A stretch of DNA of 53,148 nt, taken from the NCBI GenBank assembly GCA_017744795.1, contig JAGIAQ010000004.1:1-53148 (forward strand), given 5' to 3'. Made by a program: the position numbers and the translations under genes. The notes below the pieces were generated by a model that was given only the letters and a program-made list of their open reading frames with translations, was not told where the DNA came from and made no database searches. Shown here in pieces: positions 20,508 through 53,148 of the stretch. The DNA comes from Niabella sp. Lineage in GTDB: Bacteria > Bacteroidota > Bacteroidia > Chitinophagales > Chitinophagaceae. Numbering within the stretch: position 1 is the stretch's first letter; the number at the start of each line of letters is the position of its first letter.

Positions 20508-21647
20508 CTAGCGCAGCAAGGCTGTCGCGCTCCACAGCAACGGGGCCTGACCATGCAGGTCGCCGGTATTACGTTTGCGATCCAGGTAATATTGATGATC
20601 ATTTTTCTTGTTGGTCCCCTCGCATACATCCGTAATATCATTATCGGCATTGATATATTTGACCAGGGAAAGCCAGGCTTTGCATGCCGCTGGTGCATAT
20701 ACTTTTTGATCCAGCCAACCTTCTTTTACCCCCGTTATAAAAGCGCAGGTAAACATGCCTGTGGCAGAAGTTTCTTTCCATGAATTTGGGTCATCGATCA
20801 GCTGCCGCCACATGCCGTCTTCAGCCTGGTACTTCAATAAAGTAGCCATCATTTTTTTATACCCTGCCAGGATCCGTTCCCGGTTCGGGTTGTTCTTAGG
20901 CAGTGAGCGCAACAATTCACTCATTCCTACGGCCATCCAGCCATCTCCACGGCCCCAGTAATAGGGTACATCCGGTGCATGATAAAATAAACCATTAGGC
21001 TGTTGCAGCGAGTCAAGATAAAAGACCATTTCCTTAGCGGCACGGTCAATATATTTTTGATCACCGGTAGCACGGTAGGCCTGCGCCTGAACCGCGGTGA
21101 TCATAAACATATCATCGATCCACAAACGGGTTTGCCAGGTCAACCCCTTATCATAAAAACGACGCGAGTCAGCCGTAACGCGTTTTCCTTCGGGCGGTCC
21201 CCATTGTTTATCTGCTATTGATTTTCCAATTTTCAAATAACGGGGGTCTTTTGTTTGCATATATAATTCCAAAGGCACCGCGCCAAACACGGTATAGTCC
21301 ACGTGATCCGGTACAGGGATCAATGTATCCTGACTGCCGAATAACGGTTCAAAACGTTCTGCTAATTGTTTTGTCAGCATTTTATTGCCGGTCTGTTTTG
21401 CGAAGATCAGGGCGCCATACCAGGTGCAGGTTTCGGGATAAATGATCACTTTTGGCGGACGCACCGTATTAAAACCGGCATGTGGCGATGCTACAAACCG
21501 GGCAGCAATCCGGTCTCCGATCTCTTTCGGCGAAGTTCCCTGTGGCCAGTTTTTAAATGCTTCGATTTTTGAAGATTGCGCATAAACCGGGGCGCTGCCG
21601 GATAAAGCGGCAACAGCGGTTGCGAGCAAAATGTGAACTACTTTCAT
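20508..21647 (-). CDS. GH105 unsaturated uronyl hydrolase
   Basis: The 379-aa secreted protein (signal peptide 1-23, ending VYAQ) has the (alpha/alpha)6-barrel of the PF07470 GH88/GH105 group. Typical motifs are WQTRLWIDDMFM (171-182) with the candidate catalytic aspartate at 178-179, GRGDGWM (232-238), and ETSATGMFTCAFI in the second half. GH105 enzymes hydrate the 4,5-unsaturated uronyl residue left by lyases on rhamnogalacturonan, ulvan or related products. It is the last gene of the minus-strand PUL array, separated from the esterase gene by 257 nt that holds a 146-bp repeat. It is placed in GH105 and not GH88 because HDxGF and HQGYSD signatures are absent. Confidence 0.9.
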   Translation of the reverse strand: MKVVHILLATAVAALSGSAPVYAQSSKIEAFKNWPQGTSPKEIGDRIAARFVASPHAGFNTVRPPKVIIYPETCTWYGALIFAKQTGNKMLTKQLAERFEPLFGSQDTLIPVPDHVDYTVFGAVPLELYMQTKDPRYLKIGKSIADKQWGPPEGKRVTADSRRFYDKGLTWQTRLWIDDMFMITAVQAQAYRATGDQKYIDRAAKEMVFYLDSLQQPNGLFYHAPDVPYYWGRGDGWMAVGMSELLRSLPKNNPNRERILAGYKKMMATLLKYQAEDGMWRQLIDDPNSWKETSATGMFTCAFITGVKEGWLDQKVYAPAACKAWLSLVKYINADNDITDVCEGTNKKNDHQYYLDRKRNTGDLHGQAPLLWSATALLR

Positions 21648-21718
21648 ATATTATTTTTAAATTGTTTTTAACCACATAGACAGATAGAATTTAATCTCGT
21701 TGAGGCTTTCAAATTTCA

Positions 21719-21864
21719 TTGCATCTCCCGCAGATAACGCCGATTTTTTGCGCAGATTTTCGCAGAAAATCAATCTGCGGATATCAGCGGTGCATTAGAT
21801 CTGCTTAAAATCAGCGGGAAAGCCAGGTTCAACATTCTTTCTATAAAAAGTTTAAACAACTTCA
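21719..21864. repeat. 146-bp dispersed repeat, copy 2
   Basis: This is the second copy of the element at 6166-6311, same length and same orientation, about 90% identical by eye. It fills most of the gap between the SASA-type esterase gene and GH105, so it lies inside the presumed PUL transcript. It encodes nothing recognisable. Confidence 0.85.
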
Positions 21865-21904
21865 CTATATTCATATCTATGTGTTCATATTTAAATGCCG
21901 ATTT

Positions 21905-23425
21905 TTATTTCTGATTAATAGTCGCACCCGGCCAGTCGTCTGTTCGAAAGGGAGAAGCCGGCAACCCGTTTTTATTATACAAAGTTGCATGCGGAAAATT
22001 GACCCAGCCAAAACGAACGGCCATGGGCTCCTTCACGTTGTTGCTCCAGACCACTACCGTATTTCCCTCAATATGCGCTTCGGCAGGAACAAAGTTCCGG
22101 TCGTTACCGGCAACAGTAAAACCGGTAAGCCCCTCCTTTCCAGCCACCAGTCCATCACCTGCAAATGAAAAGTAAACTTTAACTCTATTCCCATCCCGCT
22201 TCATCAACTGATACATCGGACCCGAATAGACTACCTGCTTCCCGTAATCCTTTGCCAATGCCCATAAGGCCAGGCGTTGGCCCACTATTTCTTTATTGCG
22301 CGGATGAATATTCAGTGAATCCCCGGCATCTGTAATTACGGCCATTCCTGTTTTGGGAACTTTTTGATAGGTGAGCAACTGCGCTTCCCGTATCTCGGGA
22401 TTTTGCTTATACTGTGGTGCGATCTGTACAAAATAAAACGGAAAATCGGATCCCCATTCTTTGCGCCAGCTGTTAATTAATGCAGGAAATAATTCACGGT
22501 ACTGGTAAGCCCTGTCGGCATTAGATTCGCCCTGGTACCAGATCACCCCTTTAATTGAAAAAGGGATCAGCGGGTGTATCATGGCGTTATATAATTTGGT
22601 AGGGGACTTTGAGTTCTTCAGTGGATCTATTGGCTTTACAGGTTTTTTGTTTCCGGCAGAATCCTGTTTCCAATGCTCCAGCGCTGTTTCATATTGCTTC
22701 AGCTCATTGGGATAGTTTTTAAGATTGGATTCATACCGTTCCAAAATCGGTGCTAAATCTTTGCCGGCAGCAAGTACATCCTTTCTCACCCATGATTCTG
22801 CAGGTGTACCGCCCCAGGAAGCATGAATTAAACCCACGGGAAAACCCGTTGCCTTCCGCAGTTCACGTCCGAAATAATAGGCCACTGCGGAGAAACCCGC
22901 CACGCTTTGCGGTGTGCAGGCATCCCAGCTGCCGGTTACATCCTGCAACGGCGCTCCGGCTATTTCCTGTTTCACTGTAAACAAGCGTAACATCGGATCG
23001 GTAACTTTTATCACTTCCTGTTCGTAGTTGAAAACACCTGTTCGCCAGCCGGCTCCCTTTGCTAAGGGAAACTCCATGTTCGACTGACCCGAGCACAACC
23101 AAACTTCTCCCAGCAAAACATTCTGAACCGTGAGCTGATTTTGTCCTTTAAAAGTAATGGTATAAGGGCCGCCTGCTGCACTTGTTTTAACGGCGGCTTT
23201 CCAATTTCCTTCCTTATCCGCTGTAACACTTACCGGTTGCATATTCCAGCTGCAGGTGATCTGCACTTTTTCACCCGCATCGGCCCAACCCCAGAGCGTA
23301 ACCGTGCTGCGTTGTTCCAGAACCATATTATCGGCGATGATGGCCGGGAGTTTTACAGCGCCTTGGGTCTCGCTGCAAACAAACAGCAACAGTGCATAAA
23401 AAATATTCTTCCATTTCATTTTCAT
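21905..23425 (-). CDS. Sialate O-acetylesterase-type carbohydrate esterase (SASA/SGNH)
   Basis: The 506-aa secreted protein has a signal peptide of about 22 residues. A beta-sandwich region leads into the SGNH hydrolase with WLCSGQSNMEFPLAKG (109-124), where S115 is the nucleophile, then HASWGGTPAESWV and IWYQGESNADRAYQYR. The catalytic histidine should lie near ITDAGDSLNIHPRNKEIVGQRLA. Members of this family remove O-acetyl groups from sialic acids, xylan or pectic sugars, so the name is only a family label. In this PUL no sialidase is present, hence it more likely deacetylates backbone uronates or side chains. It follows the third GH29 gene after 65 nt. Confidence 0.88.
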   Translation of the reverse strand: MKMKWKNIFYALLLFVCSETQGAVKLPAIIADNMVLEQRSTVTLWGWADAGEKVQITCSWNMQPVSVTADKEGNWKAAVKTSAAGGPYTITFKGQNQLTVQNVLLGEVWLCSGQSNMEFPLAKGAGWRTGVFNYEQEVIKVTDPMLRLFTVKQEIAGAPLQDVTGSWDACTPQSVAGFSAVAYYFGRELRKATGFPVGLIHASWGGTPAESWVRKDVLAAGKDLAPILERYESNLKNYPNELKQYETALEHWKQDSAGNKKPVKPIDPLKNSKSPTKLYNAMIHPLIPFSIKGVIWYQGESNADRAYQYRELFPALINSWRKEWGSDFPFYFVQIAPQYKQNPEIREAQLLTYQKVPKTGMAVITDAGDSLNIHPRNKEIVGQRLALWALAKDYGKQVVYSGPMYQLMKRDGNRVKVYFSFAGDGLVAGKEGLTGFTVAGNDRNFVPAEAHIEGNTVVVWSNNVKEPMAVRFGWVNFPHATLYNKNGLPASPFRTDDWPGATINQK

Positions 23426-23490
23426 AACTTTTTAAATATCTACGCACACGAACAAAATAACAATATTCCTTTTAACGTGCTCACCCGTTT

Positions 23491-25275
23491 TTATTTTATC
23501 GGTTCGACAATAATTGATTTCAGTTTGAATAATTCTTTTCCCTGCTTAAAAGGCTTTACCACAATACGATAGATCCCCGGCTTTGCAACAGTAAAAATAG
23601 CAACCGGGTGTTTTATAAACAGGAGCGGTGCTTTATGGTCATATTCTGATGTACGCAGCGTGCGGAACAAAAAGGTTTTATCCCCTATTTCCAAGCTGCC
23701 TTCCTGGTTGGCGCTCTCCTGCGGGCAGGCATATTCCAGTAACAGTTTGTAATCACCCGGATCGGTAATACGCACAGCAAATCCGGCAGCATCTCCGGGA
23801 TCTAGCATATCTGTTACACAGGTAGTGTGTTTCCAATCACCAAAATAATGACTGTAGGTAAGCGATTGCACTTTTGCATTGCCATTTGTCTTTGCAAAAA
23901 TGGCGTCAATCATATTATTTTCGAACGCGGCCGAAACCGTTACCGGGGCCGTAGCATTATACGCAGACGCAGCGCCCTTGTATTCCACCACCAGCACGGT
24001 GCTGGGGCAATGCACATTTTTAACAGTCGCCATATTTACATAAAGATCCGTTCCCTTTTTTACAAACGGAAGCCTCATTTTCCCATCCAAAGCATACACC
24101 TTTGATACCGTATTTATAAAGCCCGGCACTAATACCGTGTCATTCGCCGGGCGATTCAGCACCTGCAAAAACAACCTGCCCGGCTTTGCTGTGGTAACGC
24201 CCCAAGGCTGCGCCGGGATAAACCCGGCAGTAGAAGCATAAATACTTTCCCCGTTTCTTTTCAGCCATTCACCCGTTGCTTTCAGATACTTTACTGAATA
24301 ATACGGTATATTGCCAAGACCATCAGGCCCCACATTCAGCATCAGGTTTCCCCCTTTTGAAGCTACATTGGCAAGGAGTTTAATGATCTCATCCGACGAT
24401 TTAAAATTCATATCATGCGCGATATAGCCCCAGGAATCATTATGCGTATAGATCGACTCCCAGGCACCGGCAATGGGCACGGGTGGAACTTCCGAATCAC
24501 CGAAATCTTTATAATCACCCAGCCCCTGCCCCACCCGGCTGCTGAATAAACTTTTGGGCTGCAGCTTCCGCAGTTCATTTATAAAGCGCTGCGTTTGTTC
24601 TTTCGTCATGCCCCCGGGCGTATCGAACCATACAATGCCCAATGGACCGTAATTCGTCAGTAGTTCTTTCAATTGCGGAATGGCTTTTTCCCGATAATAC
24701 TGCTGATAGTCTTTTTTTGATTCATCAAAATCCCAGGTATTTCTGCCGCCGTTGGGCTCATGCCAGTCCTGGAACTGTGAGTAATAAAAACCGAATTGTA
24801 TCCCCCGTTTCCGCGCAGCTTCAGACAATGCTTTCATGGGATCTTTTTTATAGGGCGTGGCGTCTACAATATCAAAATGGGTCACTTTAGAATCAAACAT
24901 CGAAAAGCCTTCATGATGTTTGGCGGTTATGACCATATATTTTACACCTGCGTCTTTGGCCAGTTGCGCCCATTCATCTGCGTTAAAGTTTACGGGATTA
25001 AAAGTTGCCGCTACCTGCTCATATTCACGCACGGGTATTTTTGCCTGGTTCATGATCCATTCACCGCTGCCATAATAATTCTTTCCCTGCCAGGTTCCCG
25101 CCAACTTAGAGTAGAGCCCCCAATGGATAAACAATCCAAACTTCGCATCCTTAAACCATTGAATATCCGGGTGCTCTTTTTTTGATGCGGTACTGTCCCA
25201 CATTTCCTCCATACCCTGTGCTCCTGTTGCAAAACAGGTAACAGCAAAGCATACTATAAATAAAATTCGCTTCAT
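23491..25275 (-). CDS. GH29 alpha-L-fucosidase (594 aa) with C-terminal beta-sandwich
   Basis: A signal peptide (about 1-19) precedes the GH29 barrel. Motifs are FGLFIHWGLYSKLAG (46-60), ITAKHHEGFSMFDS (116-129), GFYYSQFQDW (162-171) and GIVWFDTPGG, where D218 is the nucleophile of this retaining family. GNLMLNVGPDGLG follows at the barrel end. The last 160 residues (DPGDYKLLLEY, GIYRIVVKPF) form an extra beta-sandwich, possibly carbohydrate-binding. The enzyme should cleave terminal alpha-L-fucose in the periplasm or outside the cell. It is one of three GH29 paralogues in the locus; the substrate linkage is not predictable from sequence. Confidence 0.94.
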   Translation of the reverse strand: MKRILFIVCFAVTCFATGAQGMEEMWDSTASKKEHPDIQWFKDAKFGLFIHWGLYSKLAGTWQGKNYYGSGEWIMNQAKIPVREYEQVAATFNPVNFNADEWAQLAKDAGVKYMVITAKHHEGFSMFDSKVTHFDIVDATPYKKDPMKALSEAARKRGIQFGFYYSQFQDWHEPNGGRNTWDFDESKKDYQQYYREKAIPQLKELLTNYGPLGIVWFDTPGGMTKEQTQRFINELRKLQPKSLFSSRVGQGLGDYKDFGDSEVPPVPIAGAWESIYTHNDSWGYIAHDMNFKSSDEIIKLLANVASKGGNLMLNVGPDGLGNIPYYSVKYLKATGEWLKRNGESIYASTAGFIPAQPWGVTTAKPGRLFLQVLNRPANDTVLVPGFINTVSKVYALDGKMRLPFVKKGTDLYVNMATVKNVHCPSTVLVVEYKGAASAYNATAPVTVSAAFENNMIDAIFAKTNGNAKVQSLTYSHYFGDWKHTTCVTDMLDPGDAAGFAVRITDPGDYKLLLEYACPQESANQEGSLEIGDKTFLFRTLRTSEYDHKAPLLFIKHPVAIFTVAKPGIYRIVVKPFKQGKELFKLKSIIVEPIK

Positions 25276-25314
25276 ATCTTTTTTTAATTGTCTCCTAAGG
25301 CGACAGAATAATTA

Positions 25315-25335
25315 TGCGAGGCGAGACGCCTCGCA
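25315..25335. repeat. Perfect 9-bp palindromic hairpin
   Basis: TGCGAGGCG and CGCCTCGCA flank the 3-nt loop AGA, giving a very stable stem in the 81-nt gap between the dual-esterase and GH29 genes. On the minus strand no T-run follows, so it looks less like a terminator and more like a repetitive palindrome or an mRNA-stabilising or attenuating hairpin within the PUL transcript. Confidence 0.6.
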
Positions 25336-25356
25336 TAGCTAAGTTTTATTTTTCTT

Positions 25357-27321
25357 TTAACGGCTTACCAAAAAATGAACGATCCGAACCGCGTTCCCTT
25401 TTGAACGAGTATTCTTTTCGTCAGCAATAGTGATGCTTAACCGATGGGGGCCTTTTGATAAGCCATCTTCCAGCAATACATACCAGGGCAGGTGCAGGCC
25501 GCTGCTCCATTGCGTATACAAATCGATCGTCCCGGGCTCTTTTCCATCTATGGAATACCGGATCGTGCCCGCATCGGGCCCGGAAACAACAGCAATGCCA
25601 ATAGCTGTTCCGCTAAAACTGAGCTCCAGCGCTGCTCCCGGCGCCACGCCTTCCAGCACAGGCCGATTTACAAAACCCGGCCGTGTAGACACCCCATCTT
25701 TAGGCGTCCAGGCGGCATTCAATATGAATCCCTTCTTTAAAACCGCTTTTTCTACGGGTAAATAGAAGCCATCGACATAACTTTTTGTGTCCAGCATTTT
25801 GGGCAACACCGTTTTTGCCGGAGCCGGAGTTTCGTTTTTGTTAAAGGATTTATCTAATAAAGTTTCAATCGCATTCGCATACAAGGCCTGCCCAAAAGGA
25901 GCCGGGTGCAGGTTTTTAAAATCGCCTTCCCAGGAGAACTCTTTATTTTGAATGCGCTCATACACTTCCTTTGCCAGATTGATAAAGGGAAGCTGGTAAT
26001 AACGCGCCAGGCGCTCGTGCAGCTGAATTTCTGCTGGTATTTTTCCGGCCGCATAATCTGCCAGTTTAAATTCATCAGCAAAGCCCATCATAATAATATT
26101 CATATAAGGATTAACTGTCAACGCATGCCGGATGATCCCTTCCAATGCCCGCTGCTGTGTAAGAGCAGGAGTAGCATTCACATAATCATTTACGGCCGAT
26201 TCAATAAATAACAGATCCACCGGGCCTTTATCCAACACATCCTGCTGCAACCGGAATACATGCGGCAGGCTGCCCAAGGAAGGAATGCCCGCATTAATAA
26301 AGTTAAAATGAACAGCAGGATAACACTGGGCCAGCCAGGTACATACCCGGTCGCGCCAGCCCGTCATATTGGTAATAGAGCCGCCCAAAAAAGCTACTGT
26401 AACGGTTTGTTTTTTCCGGATCCGATCCAGTACATTGTTTAAACTTCCGAAGGACTGAATGAACCGCTCCTCTGGCAGGGCGACTTTTACGGGCACACAG
26501 TTAGCATAAATAAAATCAGCTAATTTTTCCGGTTGCTCAATTGTAAAATGATGTCCGTTCAATTCCTGTGCGCCCCTTGTCATGGGAACTACAGCAGCCG
26601 GGCCGCCGGCATTAATATAGTTTTGAACCAGGAGCGCTGTATTCTCAGCATAAGGAACAATACTGTCTTTTAATCCGATCACATGCAGGATAGGCACCTT
26701 GTATGCCGCTAACGTTTCCAGGTTATCCTTCGGCTGATCTTTATATTCCAGAGCCTGCGCTTCCGTGAGGCCGAATACTTTCAGTAATTTTTCCCAATCA
26801 GCTTTTGATCCTTTACCTTTCCCCCTGCCCCCCGGCCAACTGGTAAAATCGCATACAGGTGCTTCGGCATAGATACAACTTACTTTGGATGGATTTCTTT
26901 TAGCCCAGGCGTAAGCATACAGTCCGCCCCGGCTAACCGCCTCCAGCGCGGGTTTCGTCGCAAACTGTTTTTGAGCGGTGAGGTATTTATAAAGATCATC
27001 CCAGATGTTCATAGCAGTATAGTGACCAAACCGATCGGGCGCTTTTACATAAGCAATATAAAAACCACGCTCCAGTAATATGCTGTCCATATCGGTATGC
27101 CAGTCCGGGAAATAAGCCCGCCACACCCAGGGGTTACCTGCAGCTGGTTTTAAAGGAGATACATACCAGGCGTCAAAACCGTTTATTGTAAAACTGTGTT
27201 TTCTGAATTTTTTCCAGGTGGTATCTTTCTCAATTGTAATTGTTTGTGCCCGGCAAATGAATGCGGCTAACATCACCAGGGAAAGCAATATCCAACTCTT
27301 TATTTTAATTTGATCTTTCAT
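25357..27321 (-). CDS. Two-domain esterase: alpha/beta hydrolase fused to SGNH hydrolase
   Basis: The 654-aa protein (start at the second ATG, in front of the signal peptide MKDQIKIKSWILLSL) carries two esterase domains. The first (about 35-275) is an alpha/beta hydrolase with EAVSRGGLY, nucleophile S130, an aspartate in IGLKDS (D219) and histidine H257/H258 in NGHHFTIEQ. The second (about 305-490) is an SGNH hydrolase with FLGGSIT (S315), NAGIPSLGS, ESAVND (N378) and FKNLHPAPFG (H472). The usual aspartate three residues before that histidine is a lysine; D467 may replace it. A C-terminal beta-sandwich (about 520-654) follows. It could remove two kinds of ester, for example acetyl and methyl, but substrates are unknown. 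An ATG at 27339 would add six residues. Confidence 0.82.
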   Translation of the reverse strand: MKDQIKIKSWILLSLVMLAAFICRAQTITIEKDTTWKKFRKHSFTINGFDAWYVSPLKPAAGNPWVWRAYFPDWHTDMDSILLERGFYIAYVKAPDRFGHYTAMNIWDDLYKYLTAQKQFATKPALEAVSRGGLYAYAWAKRNPSKVSCIYAEAPVCDFTSWPGGRGKGKGSKADWEKLLKVFGLTEAQALEYKDQPKDNLETLAAYKVPILHVIGLKDSIVPYAENTALLVQNYINAGGPAAVVPMTRGAQELNGHHFTIEQPEKLADFIYANCVPVKVALPEERFIQSFGSLNNVLDRIRKKQTVTVAFLGGSITNMTGWRDRVCTWLAQCYPAVHFNFINAGIPSLGSLPHVFRLQQDVLDKGPVDLLFIESAVNDYVNATPALTQQRALEGIIRHALTVNPYMNIIMMGFADEFKLADYAAGKIPAEIQLHERLARYYQLPFINLAKEVYERIQNKEFSWEGDFKNLHPAPFGQALYANAIETLLDKSFNKNETPAPAKTVLPKMLDTKSYVDGFYLPVEKAVLKKGFILNAAWTPKDGVSTRPGFVNRPVLEGVAPGAALELSFSGTAIGIAVVSGPDAGTIRYSIDGKEPGTIDLYTQWSSGLHLPWYVLLEDGLSKGPHRLSITIADEKNTRSKGNAVRIVHFLVSR

Positions 27322-27396
27322 TATTATAATTCTAGTCAACTAAAATACAGAAATACTATTAAGACAGATATTACCGCTCAATGCTTCTTCAATCCG

Positions 27397-28944
27397 TTAT
27401 ATTTTTTTCATCCCGGAAGGAAGCTGGTTTTCTTTTAAGCTGATGTTCCTTTTGCTTTGCGCATCTGTTCTTATAAAAACTTCCGCACCGGCCCCAACCT
27501 TTGATCTTTCAATCACCACAGCGCCCGATGTTTTTATTTCAAAAACAGAAGCGGCATTCTTTGTTGCCGGGAACCCACCCGCCTCCATCCGCAGCCCGGA
27601 CACATCCTGCATCCATACAGCCGGACGTGCATCACTGTTGCGCAACAGGAAGGACAGATTCTTTATATTAATATTACCTGCATGTCGCGCCCAGAGACCA
27701 TAGGCCGGTATTACAGGGCCAAAAGTTTTTACTTCGGGATACTTATCAATGGCTTCAGGCACTTCCGCAACTGCCTCATCAGCAGTGCCGCCACCCGGTA
27801 ATTCGATCCGGATATTTTCTAATGTAACCCCGGATAATTTATGTCCGGGTATACCTGTAATTAGAATACCTGTGGCAGCTTTCAGCTGCGTAGTGTCGGC
27901 AGATACGGCGTTTATATTTTTCAATACCAGCTTTTCAAACAATCCTGTTTTTTGCTGTATATCCTGTCCCTTACGGAATACACTTAAGCGGGCGCCCAGG
28001 CGTAATAGTATAGGCGTACGGATGTTATCCATTTTAATATCCGAAATAGTAACATTCCGGATTTGCGCTCCATCAACAGACAATAATTTAATACCCCCAT
28101 TCTTTGTGTCATAAATATAGCAATTGGCGATGCTGATATTTTCAAAACCTGCCATTGATTCCGTTCCCATCTTTATGCCTGCCTGGTTACTTTTCAGCTT
28201 TATATCGCTAACAGTGATATTATTGCACTTCATTTTGCTGGAGGTTGTTTTAAAACACAAAGCATCATCGCCACTTACAATATCGCAATTACGGATCCGT
28301 ACCTCCTGGCAACCATCAATATCTATCCCGTCATTATGCGCCACGCCGGTGCTCCTTATCTTCAGGTCCTCTAATTGCAGGTTGCGGCTTTGAAAATAAT
28401 GCGTTGTCCAGGCCGCTGAATAGTTCAATGAAACGCCTTTAATCAGTACCTCATCACATCGCACTATGCGCAACAGAAAAGGGCGGCGGCCCCAGCGCTG
28501 ACTTTCCGGGCGTGTGTCGGTTAGAATCTGGCGCTCCTTTAATTTCGATCCCTGTCCGTCGATGCCGCCCTGACCAGTAATCCCGATATTTTTTACGTCA
28601 ACGGCTGCAACCAGGGCCCAGCCTACATCTACACCCAATCCGTCTTTAAAAGGATCGGGATTGGTATAATCATTTATATCTGTACTCCCGACAATCCAGG
28701 CACCCTTCTCTAACAGAAGCGTCACATTATTTTTTAACAAGATGGTACCGGATACATAATGCCCTGCAGGAAAAATAACACGCCCGCCTCCTTTTGCATT
28801 ACACGCATCAATGGATTGCTGGATCGTAACGGTATTTAAAGTAATGCCATCACCTGCAGCACCATAGTCGGTCACTTTTATATCGGCGGCAGCTACCGCA
28901 AAACCGACGAATAGCAGCGACAGCAAAAAACAATTTCTTTTCAT
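27397..28944 (-). CDS. GH28-like polygalacturonase-family protein with a divergent active site
   Basis: The 515-aa protein has a signal peptide (1-20) and a GH28-type right-handed beta-helix: ITDYGAAGDGITLNT-like N-terminus, GGGRVIFPAGHYVSGTILLKNN, then HNDGIDIDGC (203-212) and SGDDALCFKTT (224-234), corresponding to the family NTD and DD motifs. The family GHG segment is replaced by SNQAGIKMGTES (252-263), so the conserved histidine is missing. GH28 enzymes cleave alpha-linked galacturonate by inversion. Here the substrate may be another uronate or a branched linkage. It is 18 nt downstream of a GH29 gene, so the two are probably translated from one message. Confidence 0.84.
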   Translation of the reverse strand: MKRNCFLLSLLFVGFAVAAADIKVTDYGAAGDGITLNTVTIQQSIDACNAKGGGRVIFPAGHYVSGTILLKNNVTLLLEKGAWIVGSTDINDYTNPDPFKDGLGVDVGWALVAAVDVKNIGITGQGGIDGQGSKLKERQILTDTRPESQRWGRRPFLLRIVRCDEVLIKGVSLNYSAAWTTHYFQSRNLQLEDLKIRSTGVAHNDGIDIDGCQEVRIRNCDIVSGDDALCFKTTSSKMKCNNITVSDIKLKSNQAGIKMGTESMAGFENISIANCYIYDTKNGGIKLLSVDGAQIRNVTISDIKMDNIRTPILLRLGARLSVFRKGQDIQQKTGLFEKLVLKNINAVSADTTQLKAATGILITGIPGHKLSGVTLENIRIELPGGGTADEAVAEVPEAIDKYPEVKTFGPVIPAYGLWARHAGNINIKNLSFLLRNSDARPAVWMQDVSGLRMEAGGFPATKNAASVFEIKTSGAVVIERSKVGAGAEVFIRTDAQSKRNISLKENQLPSGMKKI

Positions 28945-28962
28945 ATAAACAGACAGCCAGGC

Positions 28963-31911: not shown

Positions 31912-31944
31912 CCGAATGATTTTAATACCATTGGCTCCCGATAA

Positions 31945-37730: not shown

Positions 37731-37781
37731 ATAGATATTGCGCTCCTATGGAGCTACTAAATATTACGCTCCTACGGAGCG
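37731..37781. repeat. Tandem palindromic repeat ATATT(G/A)CGCTCCTA(T/C)GGAGC
   Basis: Two units lie side by side: GCTCCTATGGAGC (37742-37754) and CGCTCCTACGGAGCG (37767-37781), each a perfect palindrome around three central bases and each preceded by (G/A)ATATT. A diverged third copy lies at 30402-30430. The second unit overlaps the 3' end of the GH31 gene and supplies its last codon and TAG stop. Confidence 0.75.
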
Positions 37782-42567: not shown

Positions 42568-42571
42568 TGCT

Positions 42572-45028: not shown

Positions 45029-45155
45029 TTTTAATATTTAACCACTTTAACTTTTCTATTAAGAAGAATACTTCACCGTAGCATTCACTATTAAATGCCA
45101 CGATGAAGTTATATATCTCATACCCGACCTTCTTGCTACTCCTGATCTGTGTAAC

Positions 45156-45953
45156 TTACTTTGACGGATACAATGCTAATCCATATACATGCACCACCCC
45201 GTTGGTAGCTACGTATCCGATAGACCGGCTGTTAGTGTGATCATTAAATACGATAGGTGCGATATCGGCATTGTTCTGAATGCGCAGCGTAAACATCCCC
45301 TGGGGGTCGAATCCATTTCCACCAGCCGGATTAAAGGCCGACTGAGAGGGATCCCAATAGCCCAGCAGAGATTCTTTTGTTGCAACGGTATTGGCCGGCA
45401 ATAAGGATTGCACTGACTTGTTCACAGCACTCAGATCGTAATAATTATACACGGAGGTTCCGATCAGGTACAAAAAGAAATTCTTCACGGTTTCTTTAGA
45501 ATAATCTTCCCAACGGGTAGCCGGGCGGGTTTGTGGCAGGCCGGTTGTAGCATTGATGAGCGGGTTGCCATTTGCATCTGTAACCACAATCGGAAAGGTA
45601 AAAAACAACCCCTTGTCCATCACCCCTGAGGTGTTGAAGCCGCGCACGGCATCATTGTGCAGGAATATAAAAGTCCGTCCGGGCTTTTCGTATTCTGAAA
45701 GATCGAATCCGCAATAATCGAGTCCTTTTTTCATCCACCGGAACACAGTGTCAGTAGGCGCCGCAGGTGTTCCATCGGCCCGGTTCAGCAAAAATTGTTT
45801 GGCCGTCATGTTGATGTTCGGATCAAGCGTTTGCTTATGATAATCATAATTCTGCTGCAGGCTTAACCCCAACATTTTTTTACAGCCGGGCAAAAATGTT
45901 GCAATTACAGCAAGTAGGAGAAAACTATTGATAAAGCGTTTAACTATTTTCAT
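45156..45953 (-). CDS. Fasciclin-like lipoprotein, candidate surface glycan-binding protein
   Basis: The 265-aa protein starts at the second ATG, in front of a clean lipoprotein signal ending LPGC (C24). The mature chain has a fasciclin-like pattern: TFIFLHNDAV in the middle, MFTLRIQNN followed by SRSIGYVATNGVVHVYGLALYP at the end. It lies directly after susD (39-nt gap), the position usually held by SusE/SusF-type glycan-binding lipoproteins. I infer that it sits on the cell surface next to the SusC/D complex and helps bind the substrate. No catalytic residues are seen. An ATG at 45977 would add eight residues before the signal. Confidence 0.72.
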   Translation of the reverse strand: MKIVKRFINSFLLLAVIATFLPGCKKMLGLSLQQNYDYHKQTLDPNINMTAKQFLLNRADGTPAAPTDTVFRWMKKGLDYCGFDLSEYEKPGRTFIFLHNDAVRGFNTSGVMDKGLFFTFPIVVTDANGNPLINATTGLPQTRPATRWEDYSKETVKNFFLYLIGTSVYNYYDLSAVNKSVQSLLPANTVATKESLLGYWDPSQSAFNPAGGNGFDPQGMFTLRIQNNADIAPIVFNDHTNSRSIGYVATNGVVHVYGLALYPSK

Positions 45954-45992
45954 CTGTTGATATTTTATTATTTGCAATAGACGGGATATTAC

Positions 45993-47567: not shown

Positions 47568-47577
47568 TTTACTCTTT

Positions 47578-50500
47578 TTAAAAGTTAACATTTACTCCAA
47601 ATCCATACTCCCTTCTTTTAGGATACTTCCCATTATCATAACCGGGCTGTAACACGTTGCTGGCGCTGAACTCCGGATCATAGCCCCGGTAATTCGTCCA
47701 GGTAAGCAGGTTGCTTCCGTACACATAAATGGTAGCGCCCCTCATGAATACTTTCTTTGCAATCTGGGGCAGCAACAGGTAGGAAAGCCGCAGGCTGGAC
47801 AATCTTATAAAAGAGCCATCCTCGATAAATAAACTATTGGCATCCGTTTTTTGATTACCCCTGTTCTTTGCTTCCGGATAATAGGGATATTTGGCTATAT
47901 CGCCCGGTTTCCGCCATACATTGTAAACCATTTCAGGGCTTCCGGCTCCTGTATTGGAGGGATAACTTTGGTTAAACAGCAAGGCATTGTATACGTGAGA
48001 ACCAAACGATGCATTCACAAGGAAAAACAGCGAGAACCTCCGGTAGGTAAGGTTGTTGGTGATCCCGAGGTAAAACTTGGGTTGTGCATTTGCCAGTATC
48101 TGCCGGTCCCGGTCATCAATAAGACTGTCTCCATTTATATTCTGCCAGATGGCATCTCCGCCACGCAGCTTACCCCCAGGATCATACATGCTATGCACAT
48201 AGCCGGTGTAGCGTTGCCCGTTAAAATTATAAACAGGTGCGCCATTTTCATACAAGGGCTTTCCGTCTGCCCCCAATACCAGTGTCAGTTGCTGCCAGCT
48301 ATCATTATATGCGTTGGATTCGTTCCATGCGTAAACGCCCAGATTTCTCCAGCCAAAGAAATTACCAATTTTGCCGCCTTCTTCTATATACCATTTGTTA
48401 GCCAGGATAAAAGGTTTTCCATCGCCCAGCTTTTTAATGATACTTCTCTCAAAAGATATATTCCCACCTATTTCCCAGGTTACGCCTTTGTCACTTTTTG
48501 CGAGAAACGGAGTACCCCTTACGGAGAACTCAAGCCCGCGATTCTCCAGTGTGCCCAGGTTGATCTTTACCGTATCGAACCCGGTTTCTGCCGGAAGATT
48601 TTTCGGATACAGCAGGTCCTTTGTAGTTTTAATATAGTAATCTGTAGTGAACGTTAACCGGCCATTAAAAAAGGTCAGATCCAAGCCAGCGTTTTTCTGT
48701 ATGGTTGTTTCCCAATGCACTTTTTCATTTCCAAAAGTAGGCGTAGTGTACGCACCGCCAACCCCCGCATAACTTCCGGCAAATGTTATTTTGTTCATGA
48801 AGTCGCTTGATCCGATGCGATCATTACCCACTTGTCCGATCCCAAACCGGAAACGGCCATCCGACAATGCACCTTTGGCCCATTTCATAAATGACTCATC
48901 GGAAAAGCGCCATCCGCCGGAAGCAGAATAGAAATTACCATACCTCGAATCACTGCCAAACCGGGAAGACCCATCCCGACGGAAAATACCCGCCAGCGTG
49001 TACTTTCCTTTATAGCTATAGTTGGCTCTTGCAAACATGCTGGCGCCCGCGTTGCCATTGGCATCCGTATAGGTTTTAGAAGAGGTGATATAAGCCGGTG
49101 GTGTAACAAATATATCATCACTTACCACATTGGCGTATTCGGAATGCGCCCGGTCGGCACGATCCTTATCCGCACTAATCCCTAACACTGTTTGTAAATT
49201 GTGCACACCGCCAAAGGTTTTATTATAGTTAAGAAAAGACTGATATTCCCACGAGAATACTTTTTGCATATCGTTGGACCCGTTATTCTGATCTTTATTG
49301 GCTGAAACATAACGCGGAGAGAAAGAGGTGTTCTGGCTGTTGTTCAGCATCGCATTAAACGTATTCGTAAACAACAGGTCCTTGGTAATACGGAACTGCA
49401 GGGAATTACTGAACTGCACCGCAAACCGGTCTGTTTTATTGGTTTCGTAAATGGCATTTGCCACCGGGTTCCGCTTGGAACCAATATAACTCGTCAACGA
49501 CCCATCTGGATAGTAGATCAGTGAATAGGCCGGCCGGTCAAAAGCAATTGCGACGGTTCTGGAAAGCGGCACTTCATTACCCGTTTGGTACATCAGCGAA
49601 ATATTGCTCACATATTTCAATTTGGGCGAAGCCTGGTATTCTATATTGCTTCTTACCTGTACCCTTTTTACATAACTGTTCAATATAATCGACTTGTCAT
49701 TGAGATAATTGATCCCCGTGTAATAGCTCAGCCCTTTTTGTCCGCCGCTTACGCCCAGGTTTACCTGCTGCCGGTCGCCCAGATTGCCCAGCAGCAGTTG
49801 CTGCAGATCATTATCGGAGTTAAAACCAGGGTTCAGCGAATCTACGTTCCCTCCGGTTCCCCCGTTCGGGTTAGCGGATTGTATTCTTCTGAACTCACGA
49901 ACTTCAGCCGAATTATTCTGCGGCAGTTTGTGCGCCAACTTTCCAAAAACGCGGGAATAATTCAGGTCGATCCTTGGCTTGCCTTCTCTCCCTTTTTTTG
50001 TAGTAATAATGATTACACCATTAGCCGCCCGGGCACCGTAGATGGCCGCCGAAGCCGCATCTTTCAACACTTCGATCTTGTCAATATCCATCGGATTGAT
50101 GCTGGATCCATCAGGAGTGATCACACCATCCACGAGGTACAGGGGGCCGTTGCCACTATTAAGCGTAGAGGCGCCACGGATCTGGATCGATCCTTCTGCT
50201 CCGGGGGCACCACCACCGTCGTTGGTTACCAAAACACCCGCTGCCTGCCCCTGCAAGGCATCAAATAAATTGACAGGCTGCCGCTCTTCAATTTGCTTGG
50301 AACTGATAGAAGATATAGCACCCGTAACATCCCGCTTTCGCTGGGTTCCATATCCGATAACCACCACATCATCTAAATCAGAAAGCGTTTCTTTTAACGT
50401 TATCGTTATTTGGCGGTCCTGGCCCACCGGGCGTTCCTGAGGTGTAAAGCCTACAGCGGAAAAGGTTAATACACTTTGAGCATCAGGTACCTGAATACTA

Positions 50501-50709
50501 AAACGTCCTGCCGAATCGGAGCTAACCCCCACACTGCTGCCTTTTACCAGAACAGTGGCGCCGGCAACAGGGTTGCCTTTTTCCCCTTTTACGATACCTT
50601 TGATCCGGATACTCTGCGCATGCAGCACCCCGGAAAAACAAAACAGGAACAGGCAAAAAGCAATAATCTTGGTCAAGGTTTCCCTTGTTTTTTTTAAATA
50701 ATCTGTCAT
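47578..50709 (-). CDS. SusC/RagA TonB-dependent outer-membrane transporter
   Basis: The 1043-aa protein has a signal peptide (1-32), a carboxypeptidase-regulatory-like domain (33-105, IRIKGIVKGEKGNPVAGATV), the plug start VVIGYGTQRKRDVTGAIS (116-133) typical of SusC, the PLYLVDGVI and ALKDAASAAIYGARA-like plug motifs, and a long C-terminal beta barrel ending in GFGVNVNF with terminal aromatic F. It imports oligosaccharides with the SusD that follows. It is separated from the upstream SusD by 336 nt, suggesting its own transcript. The substrate is unknown but probably the fucosylated glycan of the enzymes downstream. Confidence 0.97.
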   Translation of the reverse strand: MTDYLKKTRETLTKIIAFCLFLFCFSGVLHAQSIRIKGIVKGEKGNPVAGATVLVKGSSVGVSSDSAGRFSIQVPDAQSVLTFSAVGFTPQERPVGQDRQITITLKETLSDLDDVVVIGYGTQRKRDVTGAISSISSKQIEERQPVNLFDALQGQAAGVLVTNDGGGAPGAEGSIQIRGASTLNSGNGPLYLVDGVITPDGSSINPMDIDKIEVLKDAASAAIYGARAANGVIIITTKKGREGKPRIDLNYSRVFGKLAHKLPQNNSAEVREFRRIQSANPNGGTGGNVDSLNPGFNSDNDLQQLLLGNLGDRQQVNLGVSGGQKGLSYYTGINYLNDKSIILNSYVKRVQVRSNIEYQASPKLKYVSNISLMYQTGNEVPLSRTVAIAFDRPAYSLIYYPDGSLTSYIGSKRNPVANAIYETNKTDRFAVQFSNSLQFRITKDLLFTNTFNAMLNNSQNTSFSPRYVSANKDQNNGSNDMQKVFSWEYQSFLNYNKTFGGVHNLQTVLGISADKDRADRAHSEYANVVSDDIFVTPPAYITSSKTYTDANGNAGASMFARANYSYKGKYTLAGIFRRDGSSRFGSDSRYGNFYSASGGWRFSDESFMKWAKGALSDGRFRFGIGQVGNDRIGSSDFMNKITFAGSYAGVGGAYTTPTFGNEKVHWETTIQKNAGLDLTFFNGRLTFTTDYYIKTTKDLLYPKNLPAETGFDTVKINLGTLENRGLEFSVRGTPFLAKSDKGVTWEIGGNISFERSIIKKLGDGKPFILANKWYIEEGGKIGNFFGWRNLGVYAWNESNAYNDSWQQLTLVLGADGKPLYENGAPVYNFNGQRYTGYVHSMYDPGGKLRGGDAIWQNINGDSLIDDRDRQILANAQPKFYLGITNNLTYRRFSLFFLVNASFGSHVYNALLFNQSYPSNTGAGSPEMVYNVWRKPGDIAKYPYYPEAKNRGNQKTDANSLFIEDGSFIRLSSLRLSYLLLPQIAKKVFMRGATIYVYGSNLLTWTNYRGYDPEFSASNVLQPGYDNGKYPKRREYGFGVNVNF

Positions 50710-51045
50710 AAAAGCAATTTAAAATTCAACCGTTTGCACAAGCTGCAATAATAGCGTCATCTCTCCCCCTGGAATACCCGGCTTTTGGCTCAGAATTAAA
50801 TAATTTTGGCATGTTACGATAACGTTTTCATAGTGGCGTCAGAGGCGAAATGAGATCATTTTTTTTTGCGGGCAGGAATAATGCGAGAGCAGAACAGGCG
50901 GGGCTATTGCCCCGCCTGTTCTGCTAAATAAAGTTCCGGATCGCTTCGCTCCCCTATTTTACGTGCGTTTTATTGACATAAAAATGGTCCGAAAAACAAC
51001 GAATCAGGTTTGTATATGCACCATTATCCGAACCATTCACTACAA
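50710..51045. other. 336-nt region between two SusCD pairs, probable start of the downstream operon
   Basis: Near the susC start the DNA is AT-rich. At 50811-50830 the sequence ATGTTACGATAACGTTTTCA contains the small dyad GTTA-CGA-TAAC, a possible operator. No minus-strand TAnnTTTG box was found; a plus-strand TAATTTTG at 50801-50808 points the wrong way. A very strong hairpin lies at 50888-50925. No regulator gene is present. Confidence 0.5.
50888..50925. terminator. Perfect 17-bp hairpin between the two SusCD operons
   Basis: AGCAGAACAGGCGGGGC and GCCCCGCCTGTTCTGCT are exact reverse complements around a TATT loop. It lies about 120 nt past the stop of the upstream susD, between it and the next susC. 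Neither side has an immediate T-run, so it may be a terminator without U-tract, an attenuator or a repetitive palindrome. Confidence 0.6.
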
Positions 51046-52749
51046 TCAATACTGCGGGTTCTGCGTCAATACCGCTCCCGTATTCTGGGTGATCTCAACT
51101 GCCGGTATGGGCCACAGGTTATGAAACGGTTCGATCGTAAGCCCGGACTTTGGATTATAACGTTGGGTGCGATCATACAATTTCCCCAGCCGTGTAAGCG
51201 TTACCGCCCGGAACTCTTCCAGATATAGTTCACGTAACCGTTCGTCCAGAATATAATCAATATTCATATCCGCTGCTGACGCGGGTGCCGCATGTGCCCT
51301 GTTCCGCAATACATTGATATCATCCGCCGCCTGCTGGGTTGCTCCTTTGTCCAGATAAGCCTCTGCTCTTAATAAATACGTTTCCGCCAGACGCGCCATA
51401 TATTTTTGCAAGAACAGCCGGGAGGCGCCATTGAGCAGGATCCCGCCAAACGGATTGGTCGCATTGCTTAATATAGCCGGACCGGCAACCGCTACAAAAT
51501 CACCTGCCGATGGCGAGGTCTTGCGTATGATCGGATAAAAATTACGGATCGTATCTCTGAAATCTGCGGGAAGCACTTTGGCTTTATACCCATCTTTTAC
51601 ATACCATTTTCCATAGTCCGGCGATGTGGCGGGCACACCTGAGATACGGATATCCCGGACAATATTATAGGACGAATTACGGATATCACCCGGCGACCAT
51701 ATCTCATAAAAGAAATGGGAAGTAGGGCGGATCCAGCCCACACCATTTGAAGAAATACTGTCAACAAATTTAGAATTGAACAATACCGGCATTTTGGTTT
51801 TACTGGTCGTTTCTGCAATGCGCACACCGGTCAAACTGGGAACGATTGCCCATGCGGTTTGATCACCAACTGACGCCGAATTATTTAGCGTAGATTGTAT
51901 CACCAGCAACCCTTCATGATTCCCCTTACTATAGTTTTGATTATCGTATTCAAACAGATCCCGGTATACATCACCGGGTTGATTGGCTCTGTTCCCAAAC
52001 CGGTTCGTCATCAGCGATAATCCTGGAAAACTGATCACATTGGTTGCCATCGCTATGGCTCCGTCATAATCTTTTAAAGAGATCAGCACTTCTGTAAGCA
52101 AATGCTGGGCAATTTGTTTATTGACTGTACCATCTGCCACCTTATTAATATCAGATAATAACCCGATGGCCTGCAGCAAGTCTTTTTTACATTGCTGATA
52201 AACAGAATCCCGGCTGGCACGCACATAATCATATTTGGGTTGCGACAATTCATTTAACTCAATGGGCACGCCACCAAACAGGTTGGCCAGCACATTGTAG
52301 GAATAAGCCCTGAAGAATAATGCCTGTCCCAGAAAGCTATTCTTATCTGCATCGGCCAGCTGTGTAGCTTGCGGCACCCGGCTAATGATCAGGTTCGCAT
52401 TGGTTATGATCTTATAATAAGCCGTCCAGATATTCTGCGGAATAAAATAGGTAGGCACCATTGTAGCCTTGTAGGCATTCAGCTTTGCAGCGGGATCGTA
52501 GTCCGTAGCGTTAAAAGCGAAGTCGGTGGCGTAGTACAATCCAAAATAAGTATCGAGGTTTATATTGCCCATATAGATATTCCGCACGCCATTATAAACG
52601 TTATTGGTGGCTTGCTGAAACTGCGTAGCCGTTTGCAGCGAATTATCCGGTGTGTAAACAGCTAAAAGCGTCTCATCCAAAAAACTCTTTTTACACCCGG
52701 GCAGAATAATACCGATACAAAGAAGATTTATAATTAGTACTTTTTTCAT
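51046..52749 (-). CDS. SusD/RagB outer-membrane glycan-binding lipoprotein (second pair)
   Basis: The 567-aa protein has lipobox LPGC (C19) and then KKSFLDETLLAVYTPDN, a typical SusD start. Helical repeats with FLGQALFFRAYSYNVLANLFGGVPI and the C-terminal DINVLRNRAHAAP...LDERLRELYLEEFRAVTLTRLGKLY match RagB/SusD. It differs clearly from the other SusD in the window, so the two pairs may recognise different parts of the glycan. It follows its SusC after 24 nt. Confidence 0.95.
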   Translation of the reverse strand: MKKVLIINLLCIGIILPGCKKSFLDETLLAVYTPDNSLQTATQFQQATNNVYNGVRNIYMGNINLDTYFGLYYATDFAFNATDYDPAAKLNAYKATMVPTYFIPQNIWTAYYKIITNANLIISRVPQATQLADADKNSFLGQALFFRAYSYNVLANLFGGVPIELNELSQPKYDYVRASRDSVYQQCKKDLLQAIGLLSDINKVADGTVNKQIAQHLLTEVLISLKDYDGAIAMATNVISFPGLSLMTNRFGNRANQPGDVYRDLFEYDNQNYSKGNHEGLLVIQSTLNNSASVGDQTAWAIVPSLTGVRIAETTSKTKMPVLFNSKFVDSISSNGVGWIRPTSHFFYEIWSPGDIRNSSYNIVRDIRISGVPATSPDYGKWYVKDGYKAKVLPADFRDTIRNFYPIIRKTSPSAGDFVAVAGPAILSNATNPFGGILLNGASRLFLQKYMARLAETYLLRAEAYLDKGATQQAADDINVLRNRAHAAPASAADMNIDYILDERLRELYLEEFRAVTLTRLGKLYDRTQRYNPKSGLTIEPFHNLWPIPAVEITQNTGAVLTQNPQY

Positions 52750-52773
52750 TTTTTAAAATTTACTGTTGCTGCA

Positions 52774-53148
52774 TTAAAAGGTTACATTAATTCCCAGGGA
52801 ATAATTTTTCATTACCGGGTATCCGTTTTGATCTAGTCCCAAACCTCCCGGTATCCGCCACCCAAGGGAGGAGCGCTGACCAGATGATGGATTCGACTCC
52901 GGATCCCATCCGTCCCATTTGGTAATCGTAAACAGGTTTTGGGCATTTGCGTATACGCTTAATGCCTTTACCAATTTTAAGCGCTGCAGCAGCACGGTGG
53001 GTAAATTATAGGTAAGGGTCAGGTCCTGCAGCCGTATAAAATTACGCTGCATATAAGGCCCGAAATTTTCACCCAAGGTAGCCACATAAGCCGCAATGCT
53101 TCTGTAACGCGCGTTGGGATTATTAGGTGTCCAGTAATCATATACAAA
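52774..53148 (-). CDS. SusC/RagA transporter, C-terminal fragment (second pair)
   Basis: The frame is open to the right edge, so only the last 124 codons are present. It reads FVYDYWTPNNPNARYRSIAA at the edge, then FIRLQDLTLTYNLP and YANAQNLFTITKWDGWDPE, all hallmarks of the C-terminal barrel of SusC proteins, and ends in YSLGINVTF with the terminal aromatic residue needed for barrel assembly. The start codon lies outside the window. It pairs with the SusD that follows after 24 nt. Confidence 0.93.
   Translation of the reverse strand, partial: FVYDYWTPNNPNARYRSIAAYVATLGENFGPYMQRNFIRLQDLTLTYNLPTVLLQRLKLVKALSVYANAQNLFTITKWDGWDPESNPSSGQRSSLGWRIPGGLGLDQNGYPVMKNYSLGINVTF

What the first reader, a model, noticed from the sequence alone, without database searches (positions are those of the whole stretch)
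20508..53148. PUL for a fucosylated, acetylated, uronic-acid polysaccharide of unknown identity
A co-directional array of about 19 genes combines four fucose-type exo-enzymes (three GH29, one GH95), GH2, GH31, GH28-like, GH88, GH105, three lyase or lyase-like proteins, two esterase genes and two SusCD pairs. The families are recognisable one by one, but I know of no described PUL with this set. Alginate PULs lack fucosidases, fucoidan PULs need sulfatases, and RG-I or RG-II loci need rhamnosidases; none of these fit. A bacterial exopolysaccharide of the colanic-acid or fucogel kind, or a plant mucilage, is a possible substrate (inference).
Basis: partly seen in the sequence, partly recalled or inferred. 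Interest (0 to 1): 0.78.

Follow-up and report, generated by a model that had tools for sequence, protein, structure and literature searches.

The report
Gene cluster for eating fucosylated glucuronan
A genome of the bacterial genus Niabella carries a run of 19 same-direction genes for sugar-chain uptake and digestion, with a core shared by related genomes, that is predicted to dismantle an acetylated glucuronic-acid polysaccharide carrying fucose and galactose, possibly the acidic glycuronan of Mucor-like fungi.

Summary
No sulfatase or rhamnosidase domain was found. The genus is Niabella. The core order recurs in other Niabella and in another genus of its family.
(1) The GH2 is closest to solved beta-glucuronidases, and a homologue lies within 10 kb of PL38 in 15 of 15 other genomes that have both. 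This points to glucuronate, not alginate uronates, as backbone sugar.
(2) The GH31 matches the alpha-galactosidase PsGal31A, captured with fucose in its +1 subsite.
(3) The family-less 465-aa protein is predicted to fold as a jelly-roll lyase.
(4) A beta-helix gene just outside the given coordinates (18973-20478, + strand) is linked: within 25 kb of PL38 in 10 of 13 genomes.
I read it as a lyase-based PUL for an acetylated, fucose- and galactose-decorated (predicted) 1,4-linked glucuronan. Mucoromycote glycuronan is the best composition match found, but it is untested and no mannosidase is present. The system kind is known; the variant is new.

The parts
52774..53148 (-). SusC-type TonB-dependent transporter, second pair, C-terminal end only (contig ends)
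   Evidence: NCBIfam TIGR04056 4.6e-22 over profile 875-981, below its curated cut-off because cut
51046..52749 (-). SusD, second pair
   Evidence: PF14322, PF07980; lipobox-like Cys read from the sequence
47578..50709 (-). SusC, first pair
   Evidence: PF07715, PF13715, PF00593
45993..47591 (-). SusD, first pair; overlaps SusC by 14 bases
   Evidence: PF07980 2.7e-35; spacing
45156..45977 (-). 273-aa lipoprotein in SusE position, likely glycan-binding
   Evidence: no Pfam hit; homologues (25-81%) in the same place in G008, G012, G016, G006, G011, G308, G020
42572..45028 (-). GH2, predicted beta-glucuronidase; NQKG at residue 604 (NxKG glucuronidase motif, motif recalled)
   Evidence: PF02836; 6d7j (named beta-glucuronidase) 1164 bits and 6d1p 1047 bits, next hit 254; motif position
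40003..42567 (-). GH95, predicted alpha-L-fucosidase
   Evidence: PF22124 2e-182; aligned to 2rdy and 8zbv (named alpha-L-fucosidase); motif positions
37772..39913 (-). GH31, predicted PsGal31A-type alpha-galactosidase
   Evidence: 4xpo 1156 bits, next other protein 130 bits; Y269, E361, R413, W481 fall on PsGal31A Y274, E366, R418, W486 at a constant offset of 5
36552..37724 (-). PL38 uronate lyase
   Evidence: PF05426 8.8e-91; 3nfv 216 bits, 8bdq 154 bits; H223 and Y278 = BoPL38 H243 and Y298
34621..36495 (-). GH29 alpha-L-fucosidase (c)
   Evidence: PF01120 2.5e-82
33456..34616 (-). GH88 unsaturated glucuronyl hydrolase
   Evidence: 3wiw 357 bits; Pfam GH88 only 22.8 bits, below cut-off 26.6
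31945..33342 (-). 465-aa protein with lipobox-like Cys21, jelly-roll lyase-like, likely the surface endo-lyase
30538..31911 (-). PL6-type beta-helix lyase; Lys and Arg of the PL6 active site at K227 and R248 (motif recalled)
   Evidence: PF14592 1.1e-43; 7o84 111 bits; positions
28963..30387 (-). GH29 alpha-L-fucosidase (b)
   Evidence: PF01120 3.7e-88
27397..28944 (-). GH28-like hydrolase, nearest curated model BT4146 rhamnogalacturonidase but far below its cut-off
   Evidence: PF00295 9.4e-24; NF049898 274 bits against cut-off 500
25357..27339 (-). GDSL-domain esterase; the N-terminal half looks like an alpha/beta hydrolase by eye only (no Pfam hit)
   Evidence: PF13472 9.9e-13 over residues 317-485
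23491..25275 (-). GH29 alpha-L-fucosidase (a)
   Evidence: PF01120 6.7e-89
21905..23425 (-). SASA-type acetylesterase
   Evidence: PF03629 1.5e-19
20508..21647 (-). GH105 unsaturated uronyl hydrolase
   Evidence: PF07470 2.6e-58; GH105 rather than GH88 is my assignment (Pfam has one model for both)
20468..20502 (-). terminator-like 16-pair hairpin between convergent GH105 and beta-helix genes
   Evidence: 2 found in the stretch, 1.9 expected in shuffles, so weak as a count
18973..20478 (+). beta-helix protein, predicted lyase or epimerase, outside the given coordinates but linked

Best explanation
This is a polysaccharide utilisation locus, its core seen in 9 of 17 Niabella genomes, that likely digests an acetylated 1,4-linked glucuronic-acid polysaccharide carrying alpha-fucose and alpha-galactose. 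Mechanism, all inferred unless marked. (1) A surface lipoprotein lyase (465 aa, jelly roll) cuts the polymer, and SusC/D with the SusE-position protein import the pieces. (2) In the periplasm GDSL and SASA esterases remove acetyl groups. (3) GH31 removes alpha-galactose, likely from fucose, then three GH29 and one GH95 remove fucose. (4) The bared chain is cut by PL38 and the PL6-type lyase, possibly helped by the beta-helix protein. (5) GH88 and GH105 remove the unsaturated uronate ends left by the lyases, and GH2 removes saturated beta-glucuronate. (6) Fucose isomerase and KduI, shown to be encoded elsewhere in this genome, would feed both sugars into metabolism. Shown: gene content, order, conservation, the PL38 catalytic residues, the linkage of GH2 and of the beta-helix family to PL38. 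The best composition match found for the substrate is the fucose-, galactose- and mannose-bearing glycuronan of Mucoromycote fungi. That identity is a guess (about one in three).
For: Gene content. GH2 close to 6d7j, named beta-glucuronidase, with the NxKG motif (motif recalled). PL38 keeps H243 and Y298 of BoPL38. Characterised PL38 members cut alginate, beta-1,4-glucuronan, or hyaluronan and chondroitin (passages of PMC13027841). Linkage: leaving out the window's own genome, of 394 Bacteroidota genomes 18 have PL38 (E<=1e-60), 23 have the GH2 (E<=1e-140), 15 have both against 1.05 expected (Fisher p 7.5e-19). In 14 of those 15 the distance was computed and is 84 to 9911 bases; the 15th, G440, is about 3.5 kb by the coordinates. 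A Hymenobacter plasmid shows SusCD-PL38-GH2-PL38-GH88 with no window-like fucosidase in 41 kb, and of 17 PL38 neighbourhoods only G020 and G308 show window-like GH29 or GH95 at E 1e-6. So backbone and decoration layers separate in evolution. GH31 keeps the PsGal31A residues, and that enzyme was captured with fucose in the +1 subsite (passages of PMC9491548). Mucorales glycuronan Fuc:Man:Gal:GlcA 5:1:1:6, and EPS essentially of beta-1,4-GlcA with 9-25% fucose and 4-13% galactose (passages of PMC6433966). N. soli, which is G008 (chromosome of 4,697,343 bases), is positive for alpha-galactosidase, beta-glucuronidase and alpha-fucosidase among eight glycosidases listed (passages of PMC3569382); weak support, as it has many glycosidases.
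Against: No mannosidase domain in the cluster, though Mucorales glycuronan contains mannose. Mucoran was described with alpha-GlcA-(1->3)-Man (PMC6433966), which a beta-glucuronidase would not cut. GH28 is unexplained. Solid-state NMR of Mucorales walls showed no GlcA signal (passages of PMC11437000). In the linkage test only 4 of the 15 GH2 are 70-73% identical to the window's, the other 11 are 39-43%, and PL38 identities are 36-69%, so specificities may differ. 8 of 23 genomes with the GH2 lack PL38, 7 of them in one genus. A relative of the 465-aa lyase in G026 (L044) sits with a PL17-like protein and a PL6, an alginate-like setting. N. beijingensis is reported beta-glucuronidase negative in API ZYM (PMC9558575); its genome appears to be G016, which has the GH2, matched only by near-equal contig length. 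G034 keeps fucosidases, GH95 and lyases but shows no GH2, GH31 or PL38 in the 60 kb fetched, and has a sulfatase next to its SusD2 homologue. Foldseek TM-scores for the 465-aa protein are low (0.37 of the query at best in the 50 rows shown).
Confidence: 0.6

Rival explanations
1. The substrate is a plant or root mucilage, or a bacterial, algal or cyanobacterial exopolysaccharide that also has fucose, galactose, glucuronate and acetyl groups. The mechanism is the same but the glycan is not fungal.
For: Described Niabella come from soil and wetland. Maize aerial-root mucilage is described as fucosylated and xylosylated with arabinan and mannoglucuronan branches (passage of PMC9583020). Klebsiella K1 capsule lyase is among the best fold matches of the beta-helix protein, and that capsule contains GlcA and Fuc (recalled).
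Against: No arabinofuranosidase, xylosidase or beta-glucosidase domain in the 19 genes, which mucilage and many bacterial EPS would need. Colanic acid has no alpha-galactose (recalled), while GH31 is an alpha-galactosidase type.
Confidence: 0.25
2. It is an alginate, or mixed brown-algal wall, locus: PL38, PL6 and the jelly-roll protein are alginate lyases and the fucosidases act on fucoidan fragments.
For: Solved PL38 and PL6 relatives are called alginate lyases. The jelly-roll fold is shared with PL7, PL14 and PL36 alginate lyases. L044 pairs a relative with a PL17-like protein and a PL6.
Against: GH88, GH105 and a beta-glucuronidase have no role in alginate breakdown (recalled). GH2 with PL38 linkage. 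No sulfatase in the window.
Confidence: 0.08
3. The stretch is two neighbouring PULs: a core for one glycan (SusCD-GH2...GH28) and a second for another (a second SusCD with GDSL, GH29a, SASA, GH105).
For: Two SusCD pairs. In G016, G006 and G012 GDSL-GH29a-SASA-GH105 follow a separate block: two genes of sigma and anti-sigma size (not profiled there), SusC, a SusD-sized gene, a DUF5696-sized and a GH95-like-sized protein (profiled as such in G016 and G012).
Against: In the window the two sets are one co-directional run, largest gap among the enzymes 257 bases, and they run together in G008 as well. Both sets stand in one neighbourhood in 4 of the 5 fetched Niabella (G008, G016, G012, G006; in G011 the fetched 40 kb ends before the second set), and members of both in G308 and G034.
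Confidence: 0.2
4. Pectin-type glycan (RG-I or RG-II): GH28, GH105 and GH2 act on galacturonate chains.
For: GH28 is nearest to the rhamnogalacturonidase BT4146 model. GH105, GH95 and GH2 occur in RG-II loci (recalled).
Against: No rhamnosidase, pectate lyase or pectin methylesterase domain. GH28 scores 274 against a cut-off of 500. The GH2 is closest to beta-glucuronidases. No window-type GH28 in the homologous run of G308 or G020 (G020 has a 31% one about 15 kb off).
Confidence: 0.07

Closest known systems
PL38 glucuronan, alginate and GAG lyases (CUL-I, TpPL38A, BoPL38, Aly38A, RiPL38; list from PMC13027841)
   Same: Family, and the catalytic His and Tyr of BoPL38
   Different: Here partnered with a beta-glucuronidase-type GH2, GH88 and four fucosidases; 154 bits to 8bdq and 216 bits to 3nfv, so not close
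PsGal31A alpha-galactosidase (Pedobacter saltans, GH31)
   Same: 1156 bits; named active-site and +1 residues kept at a constant offset
   Different: Here inside a lyase-based PUL; the neighbourhood of PsGal31A itself could not be read
GH2 beta-glucuronidases 6d7j and 6d1p (Parabacteroides merdae and Bacteroides uniformis, sources recalled)
   Same: 1164 and 1047 bits, next best 254; NxKG motif (recalled)
   Different: Gut enzymes studied mainly on glucuronides (recalled); here fixed near PL38
Heparin lyase I (PL13) and other jelly-roll lyases (PL7, PL14, PL36)
   Different: No sequence match to any solved chain even as a profile at E<=10; GH131 scores 17.2, so fold alone does not fix the chemistry
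Mucoromycote glycuronan (mucoran, mucoric acid) as a substrate
   Same: GlcA, fucose and galactose, with beta-1,4-GlcA in EPS
   Different: Mannose and alpha-GlcA reported, with no mannosidase here

Membership tests
Polysaccharide utilisation locus | SusC/SusD pair with co-directional CAZyme genes | tested here: met
Polysaccharide utilisation locus | Conserved as a unit in related genomes | tested here: met
   9 of 17 Niabella genomes (own included) show the core, some in part or with frameshifts, plus G308
Polysaccharide utilisation locus | Co-induction by a defined glycan | not testable with these tools
   needs growth and RNA-seq
PL38 | PF05426 domain and BoPL38 catalytic H243/Y298 | tested here: met
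   H223 and Y278
Glucuronan-specific system | PL38 genetically tied to a beta-glucuronidase-type GH2 and GH88 | tested here: met
   GH2 15 of 15 genomes that have both; GH88 in 8 of 17 PL38 neighbourhoods at 170 bits or more, some neighbourhoods cut by contig ends
Glucuronan-specific system | Lyase activity on beta-1,4-glucuronan | not testable with these tools
   needs purified enzyme
GH31 alpha-galactosidase of PsGal31A type | Y274, E366, R418, W486 of PsGal31A | tested here: met
   Y269, E361, R413, W481 by constant offset 5; no residue-level alignment was printed
GH2 beta-glucuronidase | NxKG motif and similarity to solved enzymes | tested here: met
   NQKG at 604 (motif recalled); 1164 bits to 6d7j
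PL13 (for the 465-aa protein) | Sequence similarity to solved heparin lyase I | tested here: not met
   profile of 23 sequences, no PDB chain at E<=10
PL13 (for the 465-aa protein) | Jelly-roll lyase fold | tested here: met
Alginate utilisation locus | Exo-acting PL17 or PL15 lyase in the locus (feature recalled) | tested here: not met
   no Hepar_II_III_C domain in the 19 genes
Fucoidan PUL | Sulfatases (feature recalled) | tested here: not met
   no PF00884 in the 19 genes; the relative G034 has one
RG-I or RG-II PUL | Rhamnosidases and pectate lyases (feature recalled) | tested here: not met

The most novel reading that the evidence does not exclude
A bacterial locus dedicated to the fucosylated glucuronan of Mucoromycote fungi, built by adding a defucosylation and degalactosylation layer to a widespread PL38-GH2-GH88 glucuronan module, and carrying two uncatalogued lyase families (the 465-aa jelly-roll lipoprotein and the 501-aa beta-helix protein).
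Probability: 0.25. Interest if true: 0.75.

Novelty: new variant of a known kind. Interest (0 to 1): 0.5.

Why it matters
If right, it names a carbon source for Niabella and its kin, a fucosylated glucuronan, whose breakdown by a bacterial locus I did not find in the listings of my paper searches. It would supply enzymes to dissect Mucoromycote walls and EPS, whose precise structure is still unknown (PMC6433966). It also gives a testable rule: this GH2 beside PL38 marks glucuronate chains, which would help sort PL38 genes annotated only as 'alginate lyase'.

Tried and rejected
Searching the 465-aa protein in Pfam, NCBIfam and the PDB by sequence gave nothing useful; viral contigs hold no match to its patterns. 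PL20 glucuronan lyases did not appear among the 50 rows shown, which excludes nothing. A match of its conserved residues to heparin lyase I was considered, but no residue-level superposition was available, so it is not claimed. GH31 as a general partner was rejected: at E<=1e-150 it occurs in 7 of 395 genomes, own included; of the six others only G308 has PL38 beside it, G282 has GH95 and GH29 genes near it, and G245, G181, G249 and G217 show no window-like GH29, GH95 or PL38 in the stretch fetched around it. It is an accessory. Alginate, GAG, pectin and fucoidan were considered and ranked low for the reasons under the rivals; for GAG, no hexosaminidase or sulfatase domain is present. The papers on TpPL38A, BoPL38 and the Bacteroides uniformis glucuronidases are not held, so their details are recalled or come from citing papers. 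The beta-helix protein is placed by fold only: alginate epimerase/lyase, capsule lyases and GH28 score about 20 to 27, so lyase, epimerase or hydrolase cannot be told apart. Uniform placement as the null ignores that PULs cluster, and the 394 genomes include related species. G193, G121 and G117 neighbourhoods were cut short by contig ends.

Full report
What is there. The window is a complete contig of a genome of 4.57 Mb in 241 contigs. The genus is Niabella: G008, listed as same genus, has the 4,697,343-base chromosome of N. soli, and the named hits of the 465-aa lyase include Niabella species at up to 82% with 87% to the N. soli protein. Gaps inside the enzyme run are 4 to 257 bases. G+C of the locus (46.3%) is close to that of its flank (46.1%), so base composition gives no hint of foreign origin.

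It is a real unit. In five Niabella genomes whose surroundings were fetched (G008, G016, G012, G006, G011) the core GH2-GH95-GH31-PL38-GH29c-GH88-lyase-PL6-GH29b is kept in order, with a nuclease-like insertion in G012. The named loci L018, L021 and L023 agree as far as they reach, with frameshifts in L018 and L023; L022 is G011 again. PL38 is found in 12 of 17 Niabella genomes and the 465-aa lyase in 10 of the same 17, own genome included in both. G010 and G005 have loci with the lyase beside GH28 but not the rest of the core in the 21 kb held (L014, L019). In G308, another genus of the family, the order SusC-SusD-SusE-GH2-GH95-GH31-PL38-GH29c-GH88 is kept, the enzymes at 62 to 72% identity, with a 35% relative of the 465-aa lyase further on. 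G020 and G034 keep parts. In G034 no GH2, GH31 or PL38 was seen in the 60 kb, and a sulfatase adjoins its SusD2 homologue.

Which sugar is the backbone? PL38 enzymes are known on alginate, beta-1,4-glucuronan, hyaluronan and chondroitin (passages of PMC13027841). The window's PL38 keeps both residues named as bases in BoPL38 (passages of PMC13169297; numbering). The partner enzyme settles the sugar better. The GH2 is closest to 6d7j, labelled beta-glucuronidase, and carries NQKG at residue 604 (motif recalled). Leaving the window's own genome out, 18 of 394 Bacteroidota genomes have PL38, 23 have this GH2 and 15 have both, against 1.05 expected. In all 15 the two genes lie within 10 kb: 14, the 15th (G440, about 3.5 kb) by the coordinates. 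Only 4 of these 15 GH2 are 70% or more identical to the window's; 11 are 39 to 43%, so identical specificity is not assured. GH88 is in 8 of 17 PL38 neighbourhoods at 170 bits or more. A Hymenobacter volaticus plasmid has SusCD-PL38-GH2-PL38-GH88 and no window-like fucosidase in 41 kb. This is the evidence for a glucuronate chain as the shared substrate, with fucosidases, GH31, esterases and GH28 as a decoration layer in Niabella and its kin (inference).

The decorations. GH31 matches PsGal31A at 1156 bits, the next other protein at 130. The residues named for PsGal31A in PMC9491548 (passages) fall on identical residues at a constant offset of 5. The same passages say PsGal31A was captured with fucose in the +1 subsite, so a terminal alpha-galactose on fucose is a reasonable inference. 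Four fucosidase genes and two esterases then imply a heavily fucosylated, acetylated chain.

What glycan? Passages of PMC6433966 give Mucor glycuronan as Fuc:Man:Gal:GlcA 5:1:1:6, Mucorales EPS as essentially beta-1,4-linked GlcA with 9-25% fucose and 4-13% galactose, and mucoric acid as an acceptor of fucose; they also give mucoran as alpha-GlcA on mannose. Passages of PMC11437000 report alpha-fucose in the mobile wall phase but no GlcA signal. Maize aerial-root mucilage with fucose and mannoglucuronan branches (passage of PMC9583020) is the main alternative, but arabinose- and xylose-releasing enzymes were not found here. N. soli shows alpha-galactosidase, beta-glucuronidase, alpha-fucosidase and also alpha-mannosidase activity among eight listed (passages of PMC3569382), so mannose could be handled by enzymes elsewhere in the genome. 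N. beijingensis is reported beta-glucuronidase negative (passages of PMC9558575). I put the fungal reading at about one in three, and the whole bold case with two new lyase families at one in four.

Downstream metabolism. Fucose isomerase is encoded in 5 of 7 genomes searched, the window's own included, not in G308 or G020; KduI in 7 of 7.

Verdict. The kind of system is known and the variant is new. What remains is biochemical.

Noticed in passing
window 18973-20478 (+): Unannotated beta-helix family (no NCBIfam match above cut-off, no Pfam hit; 3545 homologues at E<=0.001 among 7994 scored) linked to PL38 across Bacteroidota; weak NCBIfam match to the BT3328 hyaluronan lyase model.
   Followed up: yes
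L034:7382-12066 and L035:13564-18166: In other Niabella a DUF5696 protein and a GH95-like DUF5703_N protein sit next to the GDSL-GH29a-SASA-GH105 set; possible further uncharacterised glycosidases.
   Followed up: partly
L044 (G026): A distant relative of the 465-aa lyase lies with a PL17-like protein, a PL6, an MFS transporter and SusCD, an alginate-like set.
   Followed up: partly
L121 11522-22378 (Hymenobacter volaticus plasmid): Small SusCD-PL38-GH2-PL38-GH88 locus on a plasmid; the GH2 matches in two pieces and is not listed among the annotated genes.
   Followed up: partly
L030:17761-19257 (G034): Sulfatase next to a 78% SusD2 homologue, with a FecR gene a few kb on, so the second SusCD pair may serve a sulfated variant in that genome.
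   Followed up: no
window 10245-11441 (+): 398-aa open reading frame with no Pfam or NCBIfam match.
   Followed up: no
window 12961-18777 (+): Complete RND efflux set (HlyD-like, AcrB-like, OEP) upstream of the beta-helix gene; genes of similar size (403, 1057, 486 aa) stand in the same place in G008 (not compared by sequence).
   Followed up: no
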